A stretch of 64,000 nucleotides of DNA from the NCBI RefSeq assembly GCF_014253075.1, contig NZ_JACLZJ010000001.1:1178001-1242000 (forward strand), given 5' to 3'. Under the pieces are notes generated by a model. That model was not told the DNA's origin. It ran no database searches and saw nothing but the letters and a program-made list of their open reading frames with translations. Source of the DNA: Ochrobactrum sp. CM-21-5. Lineage in GTDB: Bacteria; Pseudomonadota; Alphaproteobacteria; Rhizobiales; Rhizobiaceae. Below are positions 25,432 through 26,241 of this stretch, one piece after another. The position numbers and the translations under genes were made by a program. Each line of letters opens with the position of its first letter. Positions within the stretch are counted from its first letter, which is position 1.

Positions 25432-26181
25432 CTAGTGCGATGGGTGCAGTGCGTCGTTGAGATACATACATGTCAACATGGCGAAGACATAAGCCTGAAT
25501 AACGGCCATCAACGCTTCCAGTGCGGTCAATGCTACAGTCATGGCCAGAGGCAGAACGGCGGCAATGAAGCCCAGCGTCCCAAGGCTGCTCAGGCCGATT
25601 ATAAAACCGGCGAACACTTTCAAGGTGATATGGCCAGCAAGGATCACGGCGAACAAACGGACGGAATGGCTCACCGGGCGGGAAATGTAAGACATCACCT
25701 CGATAGGAATGATGATCGGCGCCAGCACCATAGGCACGCCTGAGGGCATGAACAGGCGAAAGAAGCGCAGGCCGTGCCGCGCGATTCCGTAGATCGTCAC
25801 CGTTAGAAACACCAACATCGCCAGCGCGAAAGTAACAATGATGTGGCTCGTCACCGCAAACGCGTAAGGAAACATGCCAATGATGTTGGCAACGAGAATG
25901 AACATGAAGAGCGAGAAAACGAACGGAAAGAACATCATGCCCTTTGCACCCGCATTCTCCCGCAATGTCTTGGAAACAAGCTCGTAGAGAATTTCGGCTG
26001 AGGATTGCCATCGACCGGGAACCAACGCGCGAGTGCGCGACGATAGAAGCAGGAAGCCGCCGGCTGCAACTGCCGTCAGCGCCATGAACAGCGCCGAGTT
26101 GGTAAAGGCGATCGGCAGTCCACCGATCTCCCCAAACTCTACGAATGGTTTGATTGCAAATTGTTCAATCGGTCCCGCCAT
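25432..26181 (-). CDS. Solitary F0 ATP synthase subunit a paralog
   Basis: The 249-residue protein is clearly F0 subunit a, the proton-channel stator: helices and motifs FFPFVFSLFMFILVANIIGMFPY, MPSGVP, SYISRPVSHSVRLFAVILAGHITLKVFAGF and YVFAMLTCMYLNDALH. The essential arginine is present (R175, E. coli R210), but the asparagine usual four residues later (E. coli N214) is valine (V179). No atpI, atpE or atpF genes are adjacent, unlike the normal F0 operon. It is preceded by a guanidine-II riboswitch and followed by gdx. I infer a specialised second copy; the genome must be checked for the standard atpB. Confidence 0.92.
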   Translation of the reverse strand: MAGPIEQFAIKPFVEFGEIGGLPIAFTNSALFMALTAVAAGGFLLLSSRTRALVPGRWQSSAEILYELVSKTLRENAGAKGMMFFPFVFSLFMFILVANIIGMFPYAFAVTSHIIVTFALAMLVFLTVTIYGIARHGLRFFRLFMPSGVPMVLAPIIIPIEVMSYISRPVSHSVRLFAVILAGHITLKVFAGFIIGLSSLGTLGFIAAVLPLAMTVALTALEALMAVIQAYVFAMLTCMYLNDALHPSH

Positions 26182-26199
26182 AGGATCCCCTTCCTATGG
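26178..26199 (-). promoter_or_regulatory. Hairpin sequestering the atpB start codon and ribosome site
   Basis: CCATAGGA and TCCTATGG form a perfect 8-bp inverted repeat with a 6-base loop. On the mRNA the 3' arm includes the AUG start; the 5' arm and loop include AGGAAGGGGA. The first two bases of the 5' arm are the last two C's of riboswitch hairpin P2, so the two structures exclude each other. Confidence 0.7.
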
Positions 26200-26241
26200 G
26201 GTCGTCCCCGATAACAACACAGGCGTGGGTCGTCCCACGCC
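26198..26241 (-). promoter_or_regulatory. Guanidine-II (mini-ykkC) riboswitch upstream of the atpB paralog
   Basis: On the minus strand P1 (26222-26241) is a perfect 8-bp stem GGCGUGGG / CCCACGCC with loop ACGA. P2 (26198-26209) is GGGG - ACGA - CCCC. The linker is 12 bases. The P2 3' strand runs into the hairpin that hides the atpB start codon. This is a near-ideal match to the class consensus and predicts that guanidine turns translation on. Confidence 0.85.

What the first reader, a model, noticed from the sequence alone, without database searches (positions are those of the whole stretch)
26178..26241. Guanidine-II riboswitch in front of an ATP synthase subunit a gene
Seen: on the minus strand two hairpins, GGCGUGGG-ACGA-CCCACGCC and GGGG-ACGA-CCCC, 12 bases apart, directly upstream of an atpB-type gene. 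Known: twin ACGR-loop hairpins define guanidine-II (mini-ykkC), whose usual targets are guanidinium exporters and guanidine-degrading enzymes. I do not recall an F0 subunit as a target. Inferred: this atpB copy is made only when guanidine is present.
Basis: partly seen in the sequence, partly recalled or inferred. Interest (0 to 1): 0.88.

Follow-up and report, generated by a model that had tools for sequence, protein, structure and literature searches.

The report
Guanidine-switched spare ATP synthase subunit
An RNA switch for the toxic ion guanidinium sits in front of a second, altered copy of the gene for the proton-channel part of the ATP-making machine, and this pairing is kept in many related bacteria, which suggests that they refit the machine when guanidine is around.

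Summary
Window 26197-26241(-) is a guanidine-II riboswitch (Rfam 41.5 bits, cut-off 32) whose predicted off-state hides the start codon of a full-length second atpB (AtpB2). The pairing is no local accident: AtpB2 is a separate branch of subunit a in Brucella, Ensifer, Shinella, Aminobacter, Agrobacterium, Kaistia, Afipia, Devosia and others. A guanidine-II P2-like element lies upstream of 83 of 86 distinct AtpB2 genes; 0 of 53 canonical rows had the twin hairpin. In 43 of 65 named loci no SMR match is near, so atpB2 is itself a target. Twelve of 12 genomes have one c-subunit gene, so AtpB2 must use the housekeeping rotor. Val replaces the Asn four residues after the essential arginine, at the proton-entry site, in 85 of 85 AtpB2 rows and 0 of 53 canonical rows. 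Best reading: guanidine induces exchange of the FO stator subunit, keeping ATP synthase working under guanidinium (or under the proton load of its export). Regulation is well supported by sequence; assembly and purpose are inferred. No earlier report was found in the searchable papers.

The parts
26197..26241 (-). Guanidine-II riboswitch aptamer (P1 26222-26241, linker, P2 26198-26209)
   Evidence: RF01068 41.5 bits; sequence; alignment and pair counts over 51 AtpB2-linked homologues
26178..26199 (-). Expression platform: 8-bp hairpin CCAUAGGA/UCCUAUGG that shares bases with the 3' arm of P2, holds the start codon in its stem and the Shine-Dalgarno AGGGGA (26186-26191) in its loop
   Evidence: Folding: AUG unpaired probability 0.0 without constraint, 0.49-0.58 when P2 is enforced
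25432..26181 (-). atpB2: second gene for F0F1 ATP synthase subunit a, 249 aa; Val179 in place of the canonical Asn, Arg175 and Gln229 kept
   Evidence: NF004482, PF00119; two PF00119 matches in the genome; signature sites
25342..25387 (-). Second guanidine-II riboswitch, in front of the SMR gene
   Evidence: RF01068 34 bits, cut-off 32
24993..25310 (-). SMR exporter gene, SugE (Gdx) type, 105 aa
   Evidence: NF008512 SugE 130.4 bits, cut-off 126
26407..26483 (-). tRNA-Pro(GGG), upstream neighbour on the same strand (context only)
   Evidence: ARAGORN, Rfam

Best explanation
A guanidine-inducible exchange of the ATP synthase stator subunit a. Without guanidine, the leader folds P1 and a hairpin that takes up the 3' arm of P2 and hides the AUG, so AtpB2 is little translated. 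When guanidinium binds, P1 and P2 kiss, P2 is stabilised, the start hairpin opens and AtpB2 is made. AtpB2 then replaces the housekeeping subunit a against the one c-ring that the cell has. Its proton-entry site is altered (Asn to Val next to the essential Arg, with further changes beside the conserved Gln), so that FO keeps working while guanidinium, which resembles the Arg side chain and likes carboxylates, is inside the cell. The second riboswitch turns on the Gdx-type exporter next door. Supported by computation: the riboswitch, its conservation, the start-codon hairpin of the window leader, the AtpB2 family and its signature, purifying selection, the single c gene. Inferred: ligand response in vivo, assembly into FO, and guanidinium tolerance as the purpose.
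For: Riboswitch. Directly upstream of atpB2 at Rfam's own cut-off in 59 of 65 named AtpB2 loci, and in 0 of 3 canonical loci scanned with them; in a later sample, 3 of 3 AtpB2 loci outside the family and 0 of 5 canonical loci. P2-like element within 320 nt in 83 of 86 distinct AtpB2 genes; no twin hairpin upstream of 53 canonical rows (207-450 nt examined). Pair changes: 7 of 12 pairs changed on both sides (2 of 500 shuffles as high), 49 such cells (0 of 500). Switch: the mutually exclusive layout proposed for the Gloeobacter riboswitch in PMC5486947 (passages). Family: one side of a branch. Exactly two atpB genes in 11 of 11 named genomes that could be searched, of 12 asked for; one PF00137 gene in 12 of 12 genomes, 100-134 nt from the PF00119 match of the canonical copy in each. 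Signature: Val in 85 of 85 AtpB2 rows plus L156 and L280, Asn in 53 of 53 and 11 of 11 canonical rows. dN/dS median 0.07 (33 of 105 same-genus pairs with dS<1.5). Role of the site: aN214 and aQ252 lie next to the aR210 guanidinium and hold the water that protonates the rotor carboxylate; aN214L shifts the pKa of both half-channels (PMC9447477, passages). Biguanides inhibit mitochondrial ATP synthase (PMC4148174, abstract and passages). Precedents: fluoride riboswitches with fluoride-sensitive enolase (PMC11139923, passages); Na+-I riboswitches with Na+-powered ATP synthase genes (PMC9971707, passages).
Against: No experiment. No paper seen here shows that free guanidinium inhibits FO; the biguanide effects are in the mM range, no inhibition of ATP synthesis was seen with 15 mM buformin or 100 mM metformin, two biguanides inhibit hydrolysis only, and the site is unknown. 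In the window leader the Shine-Dalgarno itself is unpaired in the free fold (1.0) and less so with P2 enforced (0.55-0.98), so only the AUG is switched, and enforcing P2 costs about 6.7 kcal/mol (-31.7 against -38.4). In 52 of 86 genes P2 lies 40 nt or more (97 or more as listed) from the AtpB2 start, so this start hairpin does not apply there and another coupling must act. AtpB2 is dispensable: 17 of 35 same-genus genomes lack a second atpB. Three of 86 genes show no riboswitch, and Ensifer sesbaniae (L143, G381) has only a degenerate one with no match at E<=0.001. Glycine or hydrophobic residues occur naturally at the aN214 site in some distant ATP synthases (PMC9447477), so the change alone does not prove tolerance. 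The AtpB2 branch has moderate support (SH-aLRT 79, or 94 with Devosia; 76 with 30 AtpB2 rows), and the canonical copies of Afipia (L215) and Reyranella (L234) fall outside the canonical cluster, unresolved.
Confidence: 0.55

Rival explanations
1. pH / proton-motive-force adaptation: Gdx and other antiporters bring in protons as they export guanidinium; AtpB2 shifts the working pH of the half-channels so that ATP synthase runs under the changed pH and proton-motive force. Guanidinium is the signal, not the poison of FO.
For: Gdx imports two H+ per guanidinium (PMC12186494, passages). aN214L shifts both half-channel pKa values and moves the maximum of synthase-direction steps from pH 7 to 8 (PMC9447477, passages). 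Neighbouring guanidine-II elements in some loci precede a ChaA-like cation/H+ antiporter gene and a solitary MrpF/PhaF gene.
Against: In 7 of 15 genomes searched the atpB2 leader is the only guanidine-II match of the genome, so a guanidine-II-controlled antiporter is not always there; other guanidine riboswitch classes were not searched genome-wide.
Confidence: 0.27
2. AtpB2 is an inhibitory or uncoupling subunit: swapping it in slows or stops ATP synthase during guanidine stress.
For: A polar residue of the proton path, Asn in every canonical row, is Val in every AtpB2 row.
Against: The essential Arg, Gln229 and His184 are kept in 85 of 85 rows and the gene is under purifying selection. In E. 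coli, mutation of any single channel residue, aN214L among them, did not completely eliminate proton translocation (PMC9447477, passages).
Confidence: 0.08
3. Hitchhiker: atpB2 is a neutral duplicate that landed between a riboswitch and the exporter gene.
For: 17 of 35 same-genus genomes lack it, at least three with remnants.
Against: No match to the window's SMR protein in the flanks (up to 4 kb) of 43 of 65 named loci; riboswitch kept across several families; invariant signature; dN/dS median 0.07.
Confidence: 0.05
4. The hairpins are not a guanidine-II riboswitch (chance or another RNA).
For: The motif is short, and the second copy in the window scores only 2 bits over the cut-off.
Against: Rfam score, conservation, compensatory changes and conserved loops.
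Confidence: 0.02

Closest known systems
Guanidine-II (mini-ykkC) riboswitch, Rfam RF01068
   Same: Twin GC-rich hairpins with ACGR loops, P2 next to the ribosome binding site, mutually exclusive start hairpin; a usual SMR target lies next door.
   Different: The target is an F0 subunit a gene. The passages that I read on targets (PMC5486947, PMC12186494, PMC3766115, PMC2864571, PMC7266159) name exporters, guanidine- or urea-related enzymes and a few other groups, no ATP synthase.
Housekeeping F0F1 subunit a (AtpB) of the atp operon
   Same: Full-length homologue with the essential Arg and conserved Gln; 59% identical to the canonical copy of the same genome.
   Different: Solitary gene outside the atp operon, separate branch, Asn to Val at the proton-entry site, plus near-exclusive Ala107, Met225 and Ile228.
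Na+-I riboswitch regulon with Na+-powered ATP synthase genes
   Same: An ion-sensing riboswitch controls both ion transporters and an ATP synthase component (PMC9971707, passages).
   Different: There it is an ATP synthase powered by a Na+ gradient; here a single subunit is duplicated and the ion is guanidinium. The primary paper, PMC9337991, was seen in the search listing only.
Fluoride riboswitch with enolase and pyrophosphatase
   Same: A toxic-ion riboswitch controls exporters and also enzymes that the ion hits (PMC11139923, passages).
   Different: There, whole enzymes; here, one subunit of a complex with a changed functional site.
Alternate F1F0 ATPase (N-ATPase type)
   Same: An additional F-ATPase subunit a.
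   Different: TIGR03306 far below cut-off (80.9 of 302.1 bits) and no second c gene.

Membership tests
Guanidine-II riboswitch (RF01068) | Covariance-model score at or above Rfam's gathering score | tested here: met
   41.5 bits, cut-off 32
Guanidine-II riboswitch (RF01068) | Two GC-rich stem-loops with ACGR loops and a short linker | tested here: met
Guanidine-II riboswitch (RF01068) | Stems kept by compensatory change | tested here: met
   7 of 12 pairs with changes on both sides, 49 cells; the outermost P1 pair is unpaired in 33 of 41 rows with letters
Guanidine-II riboswitch (RF01068) | P2 and a start-site hairpin mutually exclusive | tested here: met
   Computed only, on the window leader
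Guanidine-II riboswitch (RF01068) | Binds guanidinium and regulates the gene | not testable with these tools
   Needs in-line probing and a reporter
F0F1 ATP synthase subunit a | Curated family score | tested here: met
   NF004482 354.3 bits (cut-off 225), PF00119 210.8 (cut-off 33.9)
F0F1 ATP synthase subunit a | Essential arginine of the a/c interface | tested here: met
   Arg175 in 85 of 85 rows; aligned with Arg of 6b2z and 5dn6 chains
F0F1 ATP synthase subunit a | Conserved Asn four residues after that Arg (usual, not defining) | tested here: not met
   Val in 85 of 85 AtpB2 rows, Asn in 53 of 53 canonical rows
F0F1 ATP synthase subunit a | Assembles into FO | not testable with these tools
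   Inferred from the single c gene
SMR guanidinium exporter (SugE/Gdx) | Curated SugE score | tested here: met
   NF008512 130.4 bits, cut-off 126
Alternate F1F0 ATPase | TIGR03306 score and a second c gene | tested here: not met
   80.9 of 302.1 bits; one PF00137 match in the genome

The most novel reading that the evidence does not exclude
Guanidinium is handled as an ion by the FO motor. With AtpB2, the stator path accepts, releases or expels guanidinium instead of being blocked by it, so that guanidinium joins Na+ as an ion that both switches and passes a remodelled ATP synthase, alongside guanidine-induced transporters (Gdx, a ChaA-like antiporter, a spare MrpF/PhaF subunit). Nothing here excludes it; nothing here shows it.
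Probability: 0.07. Interest if true: 0.97.

Novelty: new variant of a known kind. Interest (0 to 1): 0.86.

Why it matters
The known guanidine response is export or breakdown (PMC12186494, passages). Here a guanidine riboswitch precedes a part of the central energy machine that carries an invariant change at its functional heart. If confirmed, it gives guanidine a concrete cellular target, shows that bacteria exchange the stator subunit of ATP synthase in answer to a small molecule, and supplies a natural series of Asn-to-Val subunits for testing how the proton-entry site works. It makes the open question of why free guanidine harms cells directly testable.

Tried and rejected
Chance hairpins: rejected. 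A complete second ATP synthase: rejected, one c gene in 12 of 12 genomes. SMR as the only real target with atpB2 as an insert: rejected, 43 of 65 named loci show no match to the window's SMR protein in their flanks (tblastn E<=1e-5, so distant SMR genes may be missed). His172 as a diagnostic change: dropped, since 11 of 53 canonical rows carry it too. Identity alone as a mark of AtpB2: dropped, since canonical L279 reaches 68% and AtpB2 L280 and L156 only 65% and 62%. Coupling of atpB2 to a leader ORF in the long leaders: 46 of 52 have some ORF that starts within 60 nt after P2 and ends -30 to +80 of the atpB2 start, but the criterion is loose, no chance level was computed and the peptides were not compared; left open. 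Only quick trees: the careful search did not finish. Structure prediction was not accepted, so that the signature sites lie around the Arg rests on literature, not on a model. Rows dropped: proteins under 240 aa (the broken copy of G009, L029) from the tree; matches under 200 aa, which leaves out the broken G002 copy; five divergent canonical rows from the count (back); nine of the 59 Rfam-positive loci, near-copies, from the alignment. In one search eight loci were tried: BLAST found atpB2 pieces in G029, G013 and G015; in G021 I see a remnant by eye only; G026 has the riboswitch straight before the SMR gene with no remnant; G020, G003 and G030 gave no output because my SMR start pattern did not match. 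In print: the searches found no paper that links a guanidine riboswitch with atpB; the library holds openly licensed papers only, the original guanidine-II paper is not held, and the gene table of PMC2864571 (Additional file 8) could not be read, so an earlier listing cannot be excluded.

Full report
OBSERVATION. The minus strand at 26197-26241 holds two hairpins with ACGA loops. Rfam's RF01068 matches there at 41.5 bits. It is one of two matches in the whole genome; the other, 34 bits, lies at 25342-25387(-). Between them lies a complete second atpB (25432-26181), and behind the second lies a SugE-type SMR gene (24993-25310). The genome's other atpB is followed 118 nt after its PF00119 match by the only c-subunit gene; the ORF before it looks like AtpI to me, by eye.

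GENUS. Of 35 genomes, 18 have a second atpB (two of them in broken pieces, G002 and G009), and 17 of these 18 have RF01068 directly upstream at E<=0.001. The 18th, G032, shows the twin hairpin below that threshold (L104). Of the 17 genomes without a second atpB, 15 still have one or two guanidine-II matches. I tried eight of these loci: pieces of atpB2 matched in three (G029, G013, G015), one more (G021) looks like a remnant by eye, one (G026) has the riboswitch straight before the SMR gene, three gave no output. So the gene was lost in at least three genomes while a switch for the exporter stayed.

BEYOND THE GENUS. In 346 genomes of the family, at least 41 have a second copy 68-100% identical to the window's (the match list was cut, so more divergent ones may be missed). 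All 41 fall among the AtpB2 rows below. A scan of named genomes kept the best 80 of 214 loci; 65 of the 80 hold AtpB2. At Rfam's own cut-off the riboswitch lies directly upstream in 59 of the 65. Of the six misses, L097, L104, L134, L143 and L164 show a weaker motif in the sequence (the L164 genome reaches 32 bits, the L143 genome has no match there) and L132 shows none. Three canonical loci in the same scans had none. Over 86 distinct AtpB2 genes (85 rows plus Devosia L156), 83 have a P2-like element within 320 nt; L072, L074 and L132 do not. None of 53 canonical rows had the twin hairpin, with 207-450 nt of upstream DNA examined. A later sample of 297 genomes of the order worked as a check: of 11 new loci looked at, the three with the AtpB2 signature (L276, L277, L280) all have RF01068 at 40.7-46.5 bits; the eight with Asn have no P2-like element, and the four of these eight that were scanned, with L001, have no Rfam match.

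THE RNA. In an alignment of 51 AtpB2-linked aptamers (the window and 50 of the 59 loci, at Rfam's coordinates) the loops and their flanking GC pairs are invariant or nearly so. Seven of 12 pairs show changes on both sides (2 of 500 shuffles as high), with 49 such cells and a covariation score that no shuffle reached; 93% of cells pair; the outermost P1 pair mostly does not. Related sequences inflate such shuffles, but slid controls give at most 59% paired. In the window leader the free fold pairs CCAUAGGA with UCCUAUGG, which takes up the 3' arm of P2 and the AUG; the AUG is unpaired with probability 0.0, rising to 0.49-0.58 when P2 is enforced. The Shine-Dalgarno sits in the hairpin loop and is unpaired in the free fold, so it is the AUG that is switched; enforcing P2 costs about 6.7 kcal/mol, which ligand and kissing would have to pay. 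This resembles the mutually exclusive layout proposed for guanidine-II (PMC5486947, passages). In 52 of 86 genes P2 lies 40 nt or more upstream; there a hairpin and various small ORFs follow P2, and how the switch reaches atpB2 is open.

THE PROTEIN. AtpB2 rows form one side of a branch (SH-aLRT 79, or 94 with Devosia, 139 rows; 76 in a tree with 30 of the 85). In the second tree the canonical copies of Afipia and Reyranella lie outside the canonical cluster without resolution, so the origin of AtpB2 is open. It occurs in Rhizobiaceae, Phyllobacteriaceae, Brucellaceae, Kaistiaceae, Nitrobacteraceae, a Reyranella MAG and Devosia. Eleven of 11 named genomes searched have exactly two atpB genes (a twelfth was not held) and 12 of 12 genomes have a single c-subunit gene, beside the canonical atpB in each, so AtpB2 can only work with the housekeeping rotor. 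Selection: dN/dS median 0.07 (0.028-0.343) for 33 of 105 same-genus pairs with dS<1.5, against 0.051 for 45 canonical pairs; AtpB2 has about 2.8 times the dN and 2.5 times the dS of the canonical copy in 42 matched pairs, so it is faster throughout, perhaps by transfer or weaker codon constraint. Position 179 is Val in 85 of 85 AtpB2 rows and in L156 and L280, and Asn in 53 of 53 canonical rows and 11 of 11 canonical partners; Met225 and Ile228 close to Gln229, and Ala107, are near-exclusive too; Arg175, His184 and Gln229 are kept in all. Alignment with solved structures puts Arg175 on the arginine and Val179 on the Asn four residues on in 5dn6 and 6b2z (that these are Paracoccus and yeast is recalled); the E. 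coli numbers aR210 and aN214 follow from that spacing and from PMC6377231 (passages), and Gln229 as aQ252 from the conserved motif. aN214 and aQ252 flank the aR210 guanidinium and hold the water that protonates the rotor carboxylate; aN214L shifts the pKa of both half-channels (PMC9447477, passages).

NEIGHBOURS. 22 of 65 named loci have an SMR match in their flanks, 43 do not. In 7 of 15 genomes searched, the atpB2 leader is the only RF01068 match; guanidine-I, -III and -IV were not searched genome-wide. In loci of Agrobacterium (L135), Rhizobium (L108) and Devosia (L156) a further guanidine-II precedes a ChaA-like antiporter gene (PF01699 in L135; below the NCBIfam ChaA cut-off in all three), and in L135, L139 and L148 a divergent one faces a solitary third MrpF/PhaF gene (three copies in these genomes, two in the other three searched). 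Spare membrane subunits and antiporters under one signal fit a response that protects or retunes proton-coupled machines.

READING. Control of atpB2 by guanidine-II is about as firm as sequence can make it (I put it at 0.93). Exchange of the stator subunit is the natural consequence of a lone subunit gene with one rotor (0.75). Guanidinium tolerance as the purpose is my choice (0.55 overall); adaptation to pH and proton load from Gdx (two H+ per guanidinium, PMC12186494, passages) is the main rival. Biguanides inhibit mitochondrial ATP synthase, some only its hydrolysis and at mM levels (PMC4148174, abstract and passages); for free guanidinium I found no data. Fluoride and Na+ riboswitches give precedents for an ion that switches its targets or an ATP synthase.

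KNOWN OR NEW. The RNA is a member of a known class; the target and the altered subunit are, as far as the searches reach, undescribed. The original guanidine-II report is not in the library, and the gene table of PMC2864571 could not be opened.

Noticed in passing
25342-25387: A second guanidine-II riboswitch before the SugE-type SMR gene, so that two switches for one ligand lie about 850 bases apart on one strand.
   Followed up: yes
L135:1763-2056(-); also near L139 and L148 (genomes G389, G390): A guanidine-II element facing a solitary third copy of an Mrp/Pha antiporter subunit F gene, another spare membrane subunit perhaps under guanidine control.
   Followed up: partly
L135:2346-3521, L108:2598-3752, L156:2556-3731: A ChaA-like antiporter gene (PF01699 in L135) directly behind its own guanidine-II and just upstream of atpB2; possibly another guanidinium exporter family.
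   Followed up: partly
L156:3807-3980: A 57-aa ORF, hydrophobic by eye, between the riboswitch and atpB2 in Devosia; no Pfam match at E<=0.001.
   Followed up: no
L009, L022, L030 (and by eye L031): Remnants of atpB2 between or near retained guanidine-II elements in same-genus genomes that lack the gene.
   Followed up: partly
Leaders of L105, L107, L147 and others: Right after P2 an ATCTC..GAGAT-type hairpin and then about 100-230 nt to the atpB2 start; the mode of control there is unknown.
   Followed up: partly
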